A program made the position numbers and the translations under genes. Below are positions 37,482 to 41,291 of a DNA stretch of 64,000 nucleotides, piece after piece (the first letter of the stretch is position 1; each line of letters opens with the position of its first letter). Source of the stretch: Winogradskyella marincola (GTDB taxonomy: Bacteria; Bacteroidota; Bacteroidia; Flavobacteriales; Flavobacteriaceae); the NCBI RefSeq assembly GCF_029624125.1, contig NZ_JARSBN010000002.1, forward strand, positions 186,001 to 250,000. The letters run 5' to 3'. The notes below the pieces were generated by a model. That model saw only the letters and a list, made by a program, of their open reading frames with translations, was not told the origin of the DNA and ran no database searches.

Positions 37482-38579
37482 TTATTTTCCAGAGAAAATC
37501 TCTTTCAATTGTGTTACCATATTTCCATTGCCTGACACAGTGATTTCACCAATCTTTTCGGCAATTTTTTCAACATACTCCATCTCTTTTAGCTTGTATA
37601 ACATATCATTCTCCTCCATCAACTTTGCTGTGTTTAACAAACTACGTGTAGAAGCTGTTTCTTCACGTCGCATAATAACGTTGGCTTGTGCTTTCTTTTG
37701 TGCAACTAAAACCTGGTTCATAATATCTTTCATTTCACCAGTTAAAATCACATCTCTTATACCGCAGTTTATAACGGTAACACCTAACTTTGATGCGCTT
37801 GTTTTTACGTCTTCAAACACTGTTTCTGCAATATTATCTTTACGTTCTAGCAATTCATCTAAGGTGTAAGCACCAACATAAGCACGCAACACCAACTGCA
37901 TTGTAATGTATAATTGCTTTTCGTAATCCTTGTTTTCTAAAAGTGCTTTTTCTACATCTTTAACTTTGTACTGTGTGTAAAAGTTGATACGAATAGCAGC
38001 TTTATCTTTAGTTAACAATTCTTGTCCTGAAATTTCTAATTGAAGCTGACGCAAATCGGCTTTAGCAATTTTTATAGAAGTATCATTTCTCCAGAAACGG
38101 TATGTACCACCTCCGAGTGTCTTTGTATATACATCGTCTACTAAAAGCACGGCTTTTTCGTAAGCTGCAACTTCAAAAGTTCTGATGTATTTATTAACTT
38201 CATAATTGCTAAAAAGTGACTTATCTAAGTTTTCAGTTATATAAATTTTGTTTAAATCTACACGTACATACTCACGCTCGATTAGACCTTTCCAGAACAC
38301 ATAACGACCAGCGTTTAGGACATTTTTAAAGTTTCCTTTTTCGTAAAGTAAAACAATCTCTCCGTCCTTTACCTCTACCACATCTAACATAGCAGCTAAA
38401 ACCTCATCTTTTAAGAGAACTTCTAATGCTATTGGTGTAGTAAAACTAGTGCTCAAATCATACATTAGTACACGCTGGTTAAAACCTAACCAGTGCAAAC
38501 CTTCAGTAATTACTCTAACGTAATCACCTTTTTTGAATACCAAACCTACTTTTCCGGCATTAATTCTTACTCGTAACAT
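37482..38579 (-). CDS. Soluble slipin (SPFH/Band-7 domain protein)
   Basis: A 365-residue stomatin/slipin-like SPFH protein without any membrane helix. The N-terminal part contains two or three imperfect repeats of a short beta segment (KKGDYVRVITEGLHWLGF, EKGNFKNVLNAGRYVFWKG, GGGTYRFWRND). The SPFH core follows (SGQELLTKDKAAIRINFYTQ ... ISGQ..LRAYVGAYTLDELLERKDNI). A C-terminal coiled coil carries AQKKAQANVIMRREETASTR, the classical Band-7 tail. Slipins of this kind are known from bacterial RNA-repair neighbourhoods with RtcB and Ro60. Here the gene is downstream, on the same strand, of a dense array of tRNAs and tRNA-like RNAs. Confidence 0.88.
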   Translation of the reverse strand: MLRVRINAGKVGLVFKKGDYVRVITEGLHWLGFNQRVLMYDLSTSFTTPIALEVLLKDEVLAAMLDVVEVKDGEIVLLYEKGNFKNVLNAGRYVFWKGLIEREYVRVDLNKIYITENLDKSLFSNYEVNKYIRTFEVAAYEKAVLLVDDVYTKTLGGGTYRFWRNDTSIKIAKADLRQLQLEISGQELLTKDKAAIRINFYTQYKVKDVEKALLENKDYEKQLYITMQLVLRAYVGAYTLDELLERKDNIAETVFEDVKTSASKLGVTVINCGIRDVILTGEMKDIMNQVLVAQKKAQANVIMRREETASTRSLLNTAKLMEENDMLYKLKEMEYVEKIAEKIGEITVSGNGNMVTQLKEIFSGK

Positions 38580-39029
38580 TGTTTTTAGTTTTTTAATTAA
38601 ACATCATTTTTGCCAACTAAGGCGAATTGGTAATACTTGTAACGGACGGATTACCAGCTTCAAAATGGTATTGACGAGTTCAACACTTTTTTGAAGTTTA
38701 TCTTTATTTTAAATTTTACTTTTAAAAAATAGCAGATTGCAAATCATCTCATCTACACGGAATTACTCATAGCAATATCTGCCATAATCAGTGCGATGAC
38801 TGCACGTTAAAAAAGGAAATCCTATTGATTTTGTCTTTTAACCTTTAATCATAACAGTAACTATTTTTGAAATTACAAATCAGTAATTCAAAGTACATCT
38901 GAGATTGCTTGTTATTGAACACTAATAGTTACTATTAAAGCCAATCTACAATCTACTATTTCGTCATTTTTGTTGAGTAGTGTGACGGGACTACTTGTCT
39001 ATCAGTTTTATAAGATGATAAGCTTAAAT
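38580..39029 (-). ncRNA. 450-nt non-coding leader/3' region between tRNA-like unit C and slipin
   Basis: No ORF is supported here. Read on the minus strand it has several hairpins. A TATCA/TGATA stem-loop (39002-39022 on the plus strand) directly follows the anticodon arm of unit C. AGTAGT/ACTACT lies at about 38970-38997, and GGTAAT/ATTACC (38628-38656) sits just upstream of the slipin ATG. A loose stem around 38734-38783 is followed by a T-run (38722-38731) and may act as a terminator. The sequence is probably the 3' end of the RNA array and the slipin leader. Confidence 0.4.
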
Positions 39030-39110
39030 CCTACATTATGAGTGTAGTGCTCTAACCTACTGAGCTACAAAGCCTAATTTGTGGTGGCTTTGACAGGAAT
39101 CGAACCTGTG
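39030..39110 (-). ncRNA. tRNA-like unit C: permuted tRNA-Met(CAT)-like element with encoded CCA
   Basis: On the minus strand the order is T-arm (39093-39109, ACAGG-TTCGATT-CCTGT), then acceptor 3' strand CAAAGCC (39086-39092). An 11-nt linker ACCACAAATTA (39075-39085) follows, then acceptor 5' strand GGCTTTG (39068-39074), D-arm with GG in the loop, and anticodon arm CTACA-CTCATAA-TGTAG (39031-39047, anticodon CAT). The two acceptor strands pair over all 7 bp. This is a circular permutation of a tRNA-Met. The linker begins with ACCA, the normal discriminator plus CCA end. No standard 3' half follows the anticodon arm. Confidence 0.75.
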
Positions 39111-39120
39111 CAACTAAAGA

Positions 39121-39140
39121 GACATTCTTTAAAGAATGTC
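39121..39140. repeat. Perfect 20-nt palindrome between tRNA-like units B and C
   Basis: GACATTCTTT/AAAGAATGTC is a 10-bp perfect palindrome in the 39-nt joint between the anticodon arm of unit B and the T-arm of unit C. In RNA it would form a hairpin in the variable-arm position. Confidence 0.6.
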
Positions 39141-39147
39141 AACTGTT

Positions 39148-39218
39148 CGCTAGAACCAAAATCTAGTGCGTTTCCATTTCCGCCATATCCGAAACCGGAT
39201 AGTGGGACTCGAACCCAC
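39148..39218 (-). ncRNA. tRNA-like unit B: permuted, capped tRNA-Leu-like element with TTG anticodon
   Basis: Minus-strand order: T-arm GTGGG-TTCGAGT-CCCAC (39202-39218), acceptor 3' strand TATCCGG (39195-39201), only two bases TT, acceptor 5' strand TCGGATA (39186-39192). Then come TG, D-arm GCGG-AAATGGAAA-CGC and anticodon arm CTAGA-TTTTGGT-TCTAG (39150-39166). The acceptor strands are fully complementary (one G-T pair), so they form a hairpin closed by a GTTT loop. With no space for mature ends or CCA, it cannot become a normal tRNA without unusual processing. The D-arm resembles tRNA-Leu, but the anticodon TTG would read the Gln codon CAA. Confidence 0.75.
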
Positions 39219-39712
39219 ATGAACTGGTGGTTTTTATTTTGGTAAAAAAACCGTAACCTTCAAGTCTAGTTGAACATAAAACGAGATACATCTCTGCATC
39301 GCATTATGCAATAGTGCTATACCGAAACACCCAACAAGACTAGCTTGATATCTTAAAAAAAGCGTTCTGAGAATACCTTCGCTTTAGGATAAACTTTCCT
39401 AGGATTATAGCCGTAGCCCTTCCCTAGTTTTCCACGCGCTTCTCATTGCTTAGAGAATTACGTACTTATCCGATGCCTTAATACATTGTAACCGTTCGGC
39501 AACTTAGACTTGGCCTGCATAGTGGCTTAACACCACGCTTTGCAATTACAAGGGTTGGCTCCCTCACCATTCATAGACGTCCTCTCTTGAGGCGGCCTAT
39601 TAGAATGTTTACCGCACAATAAAGGCTTGCGACCTCTACCGTCCCATATATTTCAATGGGTTTAGGCAACTACTAACTGCTACAATGTCCGAAGTCTTTT
39701 GCTTTTAAATCG
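39219..39712 (-). ncRNA. 494-nt structured RNA region preceding unit B
   Basis: Non-coding sequence between the anticodon arm of unit A and the T-arm of unit B. On the minus strand it is rich in stable hairpins: CCCAT/ATGGG, CCTC-AAGA-GAGG, GTGG-TGTTAAG-CCAC, TTCTC/GAGAA, GAGAT-GT-ATCTC and GGTTTTT/AAAAACC. A long-range stem TCAAGCTAGT/ACTAG(A)CTTGA encloses about 80 nt. No group I or II intron core, tmRNA or RNase P signature was recognised. It appears to be a large ornate RNA whose exact ends are unknown. Confidence 0.55.
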
Positions 39713-39781
39713 CTGTATCTAAAGTACAGTGCTCTACCAGTTGAGCTATCCTTTTGGTTCAGGACTGGGACTCGAACCCAG
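39711..39781 (-). ncRNA. tRNA-like unit A: permuted element with TTA (ochre) anticodon
   Basis: Minus-strand order: T-arm CTGGG-TTCGAGT-CCCAG (39765-39781), then TCCT-GAACCAAA-AGGA (a 4-bp stem capped by 8 nt, replacing the acceptor). Then come TA, D-arm GCTC-AACTGGTA-GAGC (39731-39746) and anticodon arm CTGTA-CTTTAGA-TACAG (39713-39729). The loop positions give anticodon TTA, which pairs with the stop codon UAA. T-loop TTCGA and D-loop GG are intact, so the elbow could form. No canonical 5' half lies upstream. The acceptor pairing is weaker than in units B and C. Confidence 0.65.
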
Positions 39782-40272
39782 ACTATTTTTTGACCTAGAA
39801 GAAGGGCTTCGAAAATGGCTTCGTAGATTTTAGCCTACAAAATACCAACCTTCTCCTTGCATGTTTCCCAACACACGGTAAGTTAAGTCACCGAACTGTT
39901 TCCAATCGGGTAACTCTTATACTGCAATACGCTCCGTAAGGTTGGATGACCTTAACGTAACCCATTACTACAACTTTTCCTATTGGTGTCTCCACCTCAA
40001 GCTTCATTAAAATTGGCTATAGATTCTTAAAATACCTCAGCGGTTGCCCCTAGTACTTAGTAACCTACGTTTGTTGCTTGCTTACGTGTACTATCTTCTG
40101 AAGAAAACAGTCTCCATTTGCAGTGCCTGCAAACAGATTTATCCTTGTTACCAAGTTTATCTAAGGACGATAAGCCGCCCCAACATTCAACAATAAAAAT
40201 TGAGAGTGCTGATTTTTTTTTAATGATGAAACTTATTATCTAAGTCTCATACAATGTCAATGAACTTTGTTG
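39782..40272 (-). ncRNA. 491-nt structured RNA region preceding unit A
   Basis: Non-coding sequence between the tRNA-Phe gene and the T-arm of unit A. Minus-strand hairpins include TTTGCAG-GCA-CTGCAAA, CTTG-GTAA-CAAG, TAAGGT-CATCCA-ACCTTA and GTAG-8 nt-CTAC. The length is within 3 nt of the region before unit B, and both carry the word GACATTGTA close to their 5' end. This hints at homologous domains, although most of the sequence is not alignable by eye. No ORF is supported. Confidence 0.5.
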
Positions 40273-40345
40273 TGGAACAGACAGGACTCGAACCTATATC
40301 GCCAGATCTTCAATCTGGTGCATTGACCAACTTTGCTACTGTTCC
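40273..40345 (-). tRNA. tRNA-Phe (GAA)
   Basis: Canonical cloverleaf on the minus strand. Acceptor GGAACAG/CTGTTCC pairs over 7 bp. Anticodon arm is CCAGA-TTGAAGA-TCTGG with anticodon GAA. T-arm is ATAGG-TTCGAGT-CCTGT. The D-stem is poor (only three pairs), and CCA is not encoded (ACAAC follows). It is first in line before the structured RNA region. Confidence 0.85.
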
Positions 40346-40386
40346 AGAATTTTAGTGCCTATCAAGATTAGTTCGTTCAACACTTA

Positions 40387-40472
40387 TGGTGGGAATTGAA
40401 AGATTCGAACTTTCTAAGTACAATACAACTGTTTTACAGACAGTCTCAGCTCACCAACGCTGACGAATTCCC
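40387..40472 (-). tRNA. tRNA-Tyr (GTA)
   Basis: Minus-strand cloverleaf. Acceptor GGGAATT/AATTCCC is perfect, and CCA is encoded. D-stem TCAG/CTGA, anticodon arm ACTGT-CTGTAAA-ACAGT with anticodon GTA, T-arm GAAAG-TTCGAAT-CTTTC. It has a 13-nt variable region, as expected for bacterial tRNA-Tyr. Base 8 is C instead of the nearly universal U, a sign of divergence. Confidence 0.85.
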
Positions 40473-40479
40473 AAATTTG

Positions 40480-40553
40480 AGACAAGAATGAGATTCGAAC
40501 TCATAAAAAAACAGAGTTGCAGTCTATTGCCTTAACCATTAAGCCATCTTATC
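40480..40553 (-). tRNA. tRNA-Cys (GCA)
   Basis: Minus-strand cloverleaf. Acceptor GATAAGA/TCTTGTC pairs over 7 bp with one G-T. D-stem GCTT/AGGC, anticodon arm ATAGA-CTGCAAC-TCTGT with anticodon GCA, T-arm ATGAG-TTCGAAT-CTCAT. CCA is not encoded (TC follows the acceptor). It is the 5'-most RNA of the array, 27 nt after the hairpin that follows the TPR gene. Confidence 0.85.
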
Positions 40554-40607: not shown

Positions 40608-41192
40608 TTACAATAAATTATTTAACCGATTCTGAAACCAGCTATTTTTAGTTTCTGTTTCAGCTTCTTTTTTAGCCTGATTTTCTAAGACTCTATTTGC
40701 ATTTGCCTGCACCTTTCTTTTCTTTTTTACACGAGACAAAACACCATCTACAAAACATATAAAATCATCATTTAACGCTAATTGCTTTGCTTCTTTTAAA
40801 GCGCGTTCTGCGTCTTCAAACTGAGTCATACTCTCAAACAGTTGGCCTTGTGCCAATGCTATACCAGCCTTATCTATACCTTTTACAGTCTTGGCAAAAT
40901 CAATAACTTTTTGAGCTTCTTCAAAGTCCTCGTTATTGGTTAATAACCTTATGTAGTCTGGATAAATATCTGTTAAATCCAATCTGCTTGCCAAGGCGCT
41001 TTCGTAATATGTCTTAGCTGTTTCGTAATCACCCAATTGCTCTGCATATACTTTTGCCATTAAGTGCAACGCTTTGGCATTTTCTGGATCGTAAGATAAC
41101 GCATAGTGCAAGGCTTCAACCGCTTTTTCTAATTCCCAAGGATACGCTTGTATTGCTCTAAACAAGTGTATGTTTTGTAATATATTTCCCAT
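40608..41192 (-). CDS. TPR-repeat protein linked to the tRNA/slipin array
   Basis: A 194-residue soluble protein from the ATG at 41192 (MGNILQNIHLFRAIQAYPWE); an in-frame TTG 15 nt upstream is an alternative. Tetratricopeptide-like helical pairs fill residues about 20-150 (ALSYDPENAKALHLMAKVYA, DYETAKTYYESALAS, EDAERALKEAKQLAL). The C-terminal tail is Lys/Arg-rich (VKKKRKVQANANR), which could contact RNA. It is the only protein gene immediately upstream of the tRNA array and runs in the same direction. A scaffold role is plausible but unproven. Confidence 0.75.
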   Translation of the reverse strand: MGNILQNIHLFRAIQAYPWELEKAVEALHYALSYDPENAKALHLMAKVYAEQLGDYETAKTYYESALASRLDLTDIYPDYIRLLTNNEDFEEAQKVIDFAKTVKGIDKAGIALAQGQLFESMTQFEDAERALKEAKQLALNDDFICFVDGVLSRVKKKRKVQANANRVLENQAKKEAETETKNSWFQNRLNNLL

Positions 41193-41291
41193 TTTCCCTT
41201 TATTCAATAGTTAATACTGTCTTAAATGCATCGCCTTTAATGGATGCTTTTAAAACTGTTTGTTTTTGATTAAATCTTAATGTTGAGACAT

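What the first reader, a model, noticed from the sequence alone, without database searches (positions are those of the whole stretch)
39030..40553. Array of circularly permuted tRNA-like RNAs between a TPR gene and a slipin gene
Seen directly: on the minus strand, three normal tRNAs (Cys, Tyr, Phe) are followed by three units whose parts come in the order T-arm, acceptor 3' strand, short cap, acceptor 5' strand, D-arm, anticodon arm. In units B and C the two acceptor strands pair over 7 bp with each other and not with any other strand in the array. T-loops keep TTCRA and D-loops keep GG, so a tRNA elbow could form. Permuted tRNA genes are known from red algae and some archaea, and permuted tRNA-like domains from bacterial Y RNAs. 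I know of no description of such an array beside a slipin in Flavobacteriaceae. Inference: the locus makes tRNA mimics (decoys, sensors or guides) in an RNA repair or tRNA-damage system, with slipin and the TPR protein as partners.
Basis: partly seen in the sequence, partly recalled or inferred. Interest (0 to 1): 0.95.

Follow-up and report, generated by a model that had tools for sequence, protein, structure and literature searches.

The report
Slipin-linked RNA with rearranged tRNA mimics
Beside a membrane-protein gene, this bacterium and many relatives carry a large RNA that imitates tRNA with its parts in rotated order and the amino-acid end sealed, possibly part of a system for coping with damaged tRNA.

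Summary
After three ordinary tRNAs the minus strand holds two structured RNAs. (2) A ~625-nt RNA (39349-38724) holding units B and C, directly upstream of slipin, covered by no Rfam family. Acceptor strands pair in the permuted register (6.28 of 7 against 2.81 for the canonical rival, 3.59 shuffled). In 49 relatives the permuted cloverleaf covaries (98.6% of cells paired). The acceptor is sealed by a loop. Of 29 family genomes with this slipin, 28 have such a unit about 0.4-0.75 kb upstream; RtcB ligase is enriched (22 of 29 against 42 of 270). One relative has RtcB and RlaP in slipin's place. Best reading: a tRNA-mimic scaffold of a slipin-based RNA-repair or translation-stress island; function is inferred and this genome lacks RtcB. 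Burroughs and Aravind 2016 (recalled, not readable here) named an SPFH-linked tRNA-like RNA.

The parts
40608..41207 (-). TPR-repeat protein gene (199 aa, TTG start uncertain)
   Evidence: Pfam TPR_19 6.4e-8; relative upstream on the same strand in 37 of 48 distinct loci with 4.5 kb held upstream
40272..40553 (-). tRNA-Cys (40479-40553), tRNA-Tyr (40387-40472), tRNA-Phe (40272-40345)
   Evidence: ARAGORN
39361..40271 (-). GOLLD RNA, flavobacterial form; 3' domain 39857-39361; the 5' bound is inferred from the end of tRNA-Phe and from conservation in two relatives
   Evidence: RF02032 131.1 bits, E 7.8e-36, whole model; conserved in L029 and L030; 11 distinct fetched loci besides the window, 6 of which built the profile
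39713..39781 (-). Unit A: permuted tRNA-like module in the GOLLD linker (T-arm, 4-bp capped acceptor, D-arm, anticodon arm)
   Evidence: R1 44.1 bits; T-arm in 11 of 11 GOLLD copies that reach the linker, window included
38724..39349 (-). Slipin-linked tRNA-mimic RNA, whole, from the conserved first base to the U-run
   Evidence: 64-sequence RNAalifold consensus; first base 39349 and U-run from 38729; fold of the window copy
39253..39349 (-). 5' leader hairpin domain, with the most conserved sequence
   Evidence: alignment A2; paired columns 16-99 with two-sided changes; part of its conservation is by selection, since loci were found through it
39150..39218 (-). Unit B: T-arm 39218-39202, acceptor TATCCG/CGGATA capped by GTTT, D-arm, anticodon arm ctagattttggttctag
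39031..39109 (-). Unit C: T-arm 39109-39093, 7-bp acceptor joined through ACCACAAATTA, D-arm, anticodon arm with CAT
38724..39030 (-). 3' domain, closed by a long helix and ending in a U-run (terminator-like)
   Evidence: consensus columns 389-394/587-592 and 423-426/583-586; fold
37482..38579 (-). Slipin (SPFH/Band-7) gene, 365 aa
   Evidence: PF01145 6.2e-33; PDB stomatin 3bk6 1.3e-14

Best explanation
The locus is a translation-stress / RNA-repair island: spare tRNA genes, a GOLLD RNA, and a ~625-nt RNA co-inherited with the slipin next to it. Shown by comparison: the RNA carries two tandem tRNA domains in circularly permuted order, whose elbow, D, T and acceptor elements are under selection; the acceptor is sealed by a loop, and in most of the first units examined in relatives the RNA leaves through the anticodon stem, like a tRNA opened in its anticodon loop. 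Inferred: the RNA is transcribed with the tRNA array, binds slipin or is held by slipin's membrane ring, and uses its tRNA elbows to dock tRNA-handling enzymes (RtcB, RlaP where present, others here) so that broken tRNAs are captured and repaired or replaced.
For: Permuted pairing against the canonical rival. Covariation on A1: 98.6% of cells paired, 192 cells with two-sided change against 56 shuffled; same helices from RNAalifold, and again in a 64-sequence alignment chosen by redundancy and slipin distance, not by pairing. Slipin in 84 of 85 distinct loci; 28 of 29 slipin genomes with the unit upstream (compared by hand); 18 of 19 other slipin genomes of the phylum sample, of which 13 above 56 bits, 4 at 53-55 bits (the range that tandem tRNAs can reach) and 1 at 33 bits. 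RtcB in 22 of 29 slipin genomes against 42 of 270 others (Fisher p 3.5e-11; kinship not corrected). RtcB downstream on the same strand in 14 of 57 distinct loci. L043 has RtcB and RlaP instead of slipin. In 18 of 72 distinct loci with a tRNA upstream the tRNA ends at the base before the RNA starts. Anabaena: slipin alr0740, rtcB and a 26-tRNA operon are derepressed in a trcR mutant (PMC10272220, passages).
Against: No RtcB, RNA_ligase, RlaP or TROVE in the window's genome; 7 of 29 slipin genomes lack RtcB, and 43 of 57 loci show none within 3.8 kb downstream. L043 keeps the leader but has no unit after it, and L064 (Chitinophagales MAG) has leader and slipin but no clear unit; L182 has slipin without a unit. 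No binding or expression data. In the window, unit B has a complete anticodon arm, so the opened-anticodon form is not what this copy shows.
Confidence: 0.55

Rival explanations
1. Decoy or inhibitor: the tRNA mimics titrate anticodon nucleases or other tRNA-targeting toxins, having an elbow but no intact anticodon loop, while the tRNA array refills the pool.
For: In 59 of the 70 first units with an independently found D motif, the anticodon stem has five pairs made by strands outside the hairpin. A competitive-inhibitor role is proposed for YrlA by Hughes et al. 2020 (PMC7790460, passages). A tRNA gene lies upstream in 72 of 92 distinct loci.
Against: Near-obligate slipin linkage and the large 3' domain are not needed for a decoy; the second unit keeps a whole anticodon arm in 35 of 43; no PADLOC match for slipin or TPR.
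Confidence: 0.2
2. Cis-acting leader of slipin: the RNA senses free tRNA-binding protein or damaged tRNA and controls readthrough of the U-run into slipin.
For: Just upstream on the same strand; ends in a long helix and U-run; tRNA-mimicking leaders exist for threonyl-tRNA synthetase (recalled).
Against: In the window about 145 nt remain between U-run and slipin (not measured in the relatives); two mimics and a 600-nt RNA are large for a leader; L043 keeps the leader motif in front of other genes.
Confidence: 0.15
3. Permuted genes for real tRNAs, matured through a circular intermediate as in red algae.
For: Some units keep NCCA after the 3' acceptor strand, 14 of 176 units including window unit C, and CCA-like letters also stand in several GOLLD linkers; RtcB is a tRNA ligase.
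Against: 162 of 176 units lack it; caps are mostly short (median hairpin 17 and 18.5 nt in first and second units); no RtcB or RNA_ligase in this genome.
Confidence: 0.03
4. Ordinary tandem or decayed tRNA genes that only look permuted.
For: Model R1 scores 40-55 bits on what look like tandem tRNAs elsewhere; cmscan calls two canonical tRNAs here at 41 and 33 bits.
Against: Canonical partners pair worse than shuffled ones (2.81 against 3.59 of 7); tandem copies would pair both ways.
Confidence: 0.01

Closest known systems
Bacterial Y RNA YrlA (RF02553) of rsr-yrlBA-rtcBA operons
   Same: Permuted tRNA-like module (T-arm, capped acceptor, D-arm) near RtcB
   Different: Here two tandem modules in a ~625-nt RNA with other 5' and 3' domains; slipin instead of Ro60/TROVE; YrlA scores 39.1 and 29.1 bits here, below its cut-off of 69; no TROVE in this genome (relatives not tested)
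SPFH/Band-7 module with a 'novel tRNA-like molecule' (Burroughs and Aravind 2016; recalled abstract, not read)
   Same: Band-7 protein with a cognate tRNA-like RNA in RNA-repair contexts
   Different: Cannot be compared in detail here; whether permutation, tandem units, leader, 3' domain or GOLLD were described is unknown to me
GOLLD RNA (RF02032)
   Same: Whole-model match at E 7.8e-36, beside tRNA genes, variable linker between 5' and 3' domains; tRNAs in the linker are known (PMC12286853, passages), as is a pseudo-tRNA inside a mycobacterial GOLLD (PMC6582537, passages)
   Different: Below the gathering score; in bacterial chromosomes of Flavobacteriaceae; the linker tRNA is in permuted order. 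Whether the linker tRNAs of other GOLLDs are permuted I did not test
Permuted tRNA genes of red algae and archaea (PMC3978253, passages)
   Same: Order of halves
   Different: Those are ligated and processed to working tRNAs with a free acceptor; here the acceptor is capped and mostly lacks CCA
Anabaena TrcR regulon (PMC10272220, passages)
   Same: Slipin, RtcB and a tRNA array repressed by one regulator
   Different: Scattered genes; the term tRNA-like does not occur in its main text

Membership tests
GOLLD (RF02032) | Covariance-model match over the whole model | tested here: inconclusive
   131.1 bits, positions 1-416, E 7.8e-36, but under the gathering score of 150; six relatives 119-136 bits
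GOLLD (RF02032) | Near tRNA genes, about 800 nt or more with a variable linker | tested here: met
   Lies after tRNA-Phe; about 910 nt if the inferred 5' bound is right; linker varies
GOLLD (RF02032) | Nanocage assembly | not testable with these tools
   Needs cryo-EM
YrlA / bacterial Y RNA | Rfam YrlA match over cut-off | tested here: not met
   39.1 and 29.1 bits against 69
YrlA / bacterial Y RNA | Permuted tRNA-like module | tested here: met
YrlA / bacterial Y RNA | Partner Ro60/TROVE protein | tested here: not met
   No PF05731 in the window's genome; relatives not tested
Permuted tRNA genes (algal/archaeal type) | Yields a mature tRNA with free CCA end | tested here: inconclusive
   NCCA after the acceptor strand in 14 of 176 units; no RNA data
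SPFH/Band-7 tRNA-like RNA system (Burroughs and Aravind 2016) | Band-7 gene beside a tRNA-like RNA, RNA-repair genes nearby | tested here: inconclusive
   The features as recalled are present in the family, though the window's genome has no repair ligase; identity with their RNA cannot be tested, paper not held

The most novel reading that the evidence does not exclude
Bacteroidota carry a slipin-anchored RNA machine in which two tandem, circularly permuted tRNA domains with sealed acceptors imitate tRNAs opened at the anticodon, capturing tRNA-damage or repair enzymes at the membrane; in some genomes a neighbouring GOLLD nanocage displays a third permuted tRNA elbow in its lumen, as part of the same tRNA-protection island.
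Probability: 0.3. Interest if true: 0.88.

Novelty: new variant of a known kind. Interest (0 to 1): 0.73.

Why it matters
It defines a structured RNA with tandem permuted tRNA mimics that travels almost one-to-one with a slipin, which gives a concrete RNA ligand to test for bacterial SPFH proteins, ties GOLLD and its linker to tRNA mimicry, and makes the roles of slipin and of Y-RNA-like tRNA mimics in RNA repair directly testable.

Tried and rejected
Canonical tRNAs split by long introns: rejected, 5' halves do not pair with the next 3' strand. Tandem-tRNA artefact: recognised as a trap for model R1 (210 of 299 genomes, inflated) and rejected for the slipin loci. Viral origin of the slipin-linked RNA: no match of the leader pattern in viral contigs; the phage collection gave only a tRNA match, in 2 records of one phage. 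Known defence system: PADLOC empty for the 7 proteins given. One RNA made of all three units: rejected, A is GOLLD. A self-splicing intron between the halves was considered and dropped without a separate test once GOLLD was found.

Limits of the counts: one search matched 25 of 299 genomes; I fetched wider stretches for 20 of the 24 other than the window's, leaving G105, G110, G188 and G296. Eight genomes were fetched twice, so the tallies (for example slipin 90 of 91) were recounted on 92 distinct loci; the report uses those. A1 holds 49 of the 53 references listed (first units with a D motif and a short cap); I left out L061, L081, L097 and L042, whose first recognised unit fits the upstream anticodon strand poorly, so the anticodon helix is favoured by that choice; the figure before it is 59 of 70. 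T arms were chosen with 5 of 5 pairs, so T-stem pairing there is partly by selection. By the rule, 88 of 91 distinct loci have at least one unit and 76 of 91 two; of the three without, L095 has one by R1 (58.5 bits), L064 and L043 do not. The GOLLD-linker test found a hairpin followed by a D motif in 9 of 11, but it had no shuffled control, its motif is loose and the match in L114 looks accidental; five of the nine hairpins are 6-8 bp. The 28 of 29, 22 of 29 and 18 of 19 tallies were made by hand from printed tables.

Full report
What is there. Reading 40800-38400 on the minus strand, ARAGORN finds tRNA-Cys, Tyr and Phe. Behind them lie not one array but two RNAs. The first, from about the end of tRNA-Phe to 39361, matches GOLLD over the whole Rfam model (131.1 bits, gathering score 150, E 7.8e-36). 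The same stretch is conserved in L029 and L030. A profile of seven copies (window and six relatives) finds it in 11 distinct fetched loci, the six that built it and five more (L078, L101, L070, L109, L125, the last cut by the locus end), with a fragment in L063 (L056 repeats L030). Unit A sits in its linker. In all 11 copies that reach the linker, window included, there is a T-arm, and in 9 of 11 a hairpin and then a D-arm motif follow it, 6-8 bp long in five (no shuffled control, one match doubtful). The known GOLLD linker points into the nanocage and sometimes holds tRNAs (PMC12286853, passages; words beginning with permut do not occur in its main text).

The second RNA starts at 39349 and ends near 38724 with a U-run. 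None was found in viral contigs. No Rfam family covered this RNA; the significant matches there are the sub-threshold YrlA match and tRNA matches to the units.

Permutation is real. Taking 91 non-redundant loci, window included, I located T-arms and, without looking at acceptor pairing, D-arms (124 of 194 T arms, 123 usable). Acceptor strands of one unit pair with each other at 6.28 of 7 positions, with all four Watson-Crick types at 5 of the 7 positions; the canonical alternative pairs at 2.81 (n=68), below shuffled partners at 3.59. In 49 first units the cloverleaf opened at the anticodon has 98.6% paired cells, 16 of 18 pairs with two-sided changes and a covariation score of 0.618 against 0.238 shuffled and at most 0.175 when slid; RNAalifold returns the same 18 pairs plus one. 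On 64 sequences from leader to slipin start, chosen by redundancy and distance to slipin, RNAalifold again finds both units, the leader hairpin, extra hairpins and long-range 3' helices. There the T-loop is TTCRA in 62 (unit 1) and 63 (unit 2) of 64, and the D-loop of unit 1 has GG in 64 of 64.

Two subtypes exist. In 59 of 70 first units examined the anticodon stem has five pairs made by a strand before the T-arm and one after the D-arm, so the unit resembles a tRNA opened in the anticodon loop; the second unit has a whole anticodon arm in 35 of 43. In the window, unit B is of the second kind, enclosed by a small GUUC/GAAC helix when folded alone. The acceptor ends in a loop, mostly short; NCCA follows the 3' strand in 14 of 176 units, among them window unit C, so aminoacylation looks unlikely for most.

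Neighbours. Slipin follows within 1.3 kb in 84 of 85 distinct loci long enough to tell; the exception, L043, has RtcB and two RlaP-type proteins after the leader, with a TPR gene and tRNAs before it as elsewhere, and no unit after the leader. RtcB follows on the same strand within 3.8 kb in 14 of 57, and some RtcB lies in the held stretch of 28 of 92. In 299 family genomes slipin is in 29; 28 of these have a unit about 0.4-0.75 kb upstream on the same strand (compared by hand); the exception G200 has only a slipin fragment. RtcB occurs in 22 of the 29 and in 42 of the other 270 (Fisher, not corrected for kinship). Across 395 genomes of the phylum sample 20 have slipin; 18 of the 19 other than the window's have an R1 match upstream: 13 above 56 bits, four at 53-55 bits where tandem tRNAs can also score, one at 33 bits; L182 has none. 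They span several families by the kinship column. In 18 of 72 distinct loci with a tRNA upstream, the tRNA ends exactly at the base before the RNA begins, which suggests that tRNA 3' processing can free its 5' end (inference). The window's genome has no RtcB, TROVE, RNA_ligase or RlaP.

How it may work. Elbow-bearing tRNA mimics that could hardly be charged, beside an oligomeric membrane scaffold and, often, an RNA ligase, suggest a docking RNA for tRNA repair or surveillance. In Anabaena a slipin gene, rtcB and a 26-tRNA operon rise when the repressor TrcR is lost (PMC10272220, passages), an independent link between slipin and translation stress. A decoy role, already suggested for YrlA (PMC7790460, passages), and a cis-leader role remain open.

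Novelty. Searches for slipin, Band-7 or SPFH together with tRNA-like (and RtcB, RNA repair or RNA ligase) gave no paper, but the library lacks Burroughs and Aravind 2016, whose abstract as I recall it names SPFH/Band-7 modules with a novel tRNA-like RNA. I made no search for GOLLD with permutation beyond, and of the 11 papers listed on permuted tRNA I looked into one (PMC3978253, passages). I therefore rate this a new variant of a known kind: the architecture (tandem permuted domains, sealed acceptor, leader and 3' domain), the slipin coupling beyond one family and the GOLLD linker module are what may be new.

Noticed in passing
L043:5208-9561: RtcB plus two adjacent RlaP-type ORFs and two unnamed ORFs (147 and 230 aa) stand where slipin is elsewhere; relatives of the unnamed ORFs recur at L072, L077 and L111, and of RlaP at L059, L072 and L119.
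   Followed up: partly
L061 (same genome as L039), L066, L069, L034, L045 upstream of the element: A second, distant RtcB family (26-29% identical to L043's) lies upstream of the element; in distant relatives L174, L175, L177, L181-L183 such an RtcB (27-31%) lies on the 3' side of slipin (strand not printed).
   Followed up: no
L031:5711-5786 and L030:7536-7608: Flavo-1 RNA (RF01705) lies between this RNA and slipin in L031, and just after slipin on the other strand in L030.
   Followed up: no
G033:C34:162072-162394: Evenly spaced matches of about 50 bits that look like tandem tRNA genes: a general trap when searching for permuted tRNAs (the stretch itself was not fetched).
   Followed up: no
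L094:3190-3690: HD-domain protein beside slipin and RtcB.
   Followed up: no
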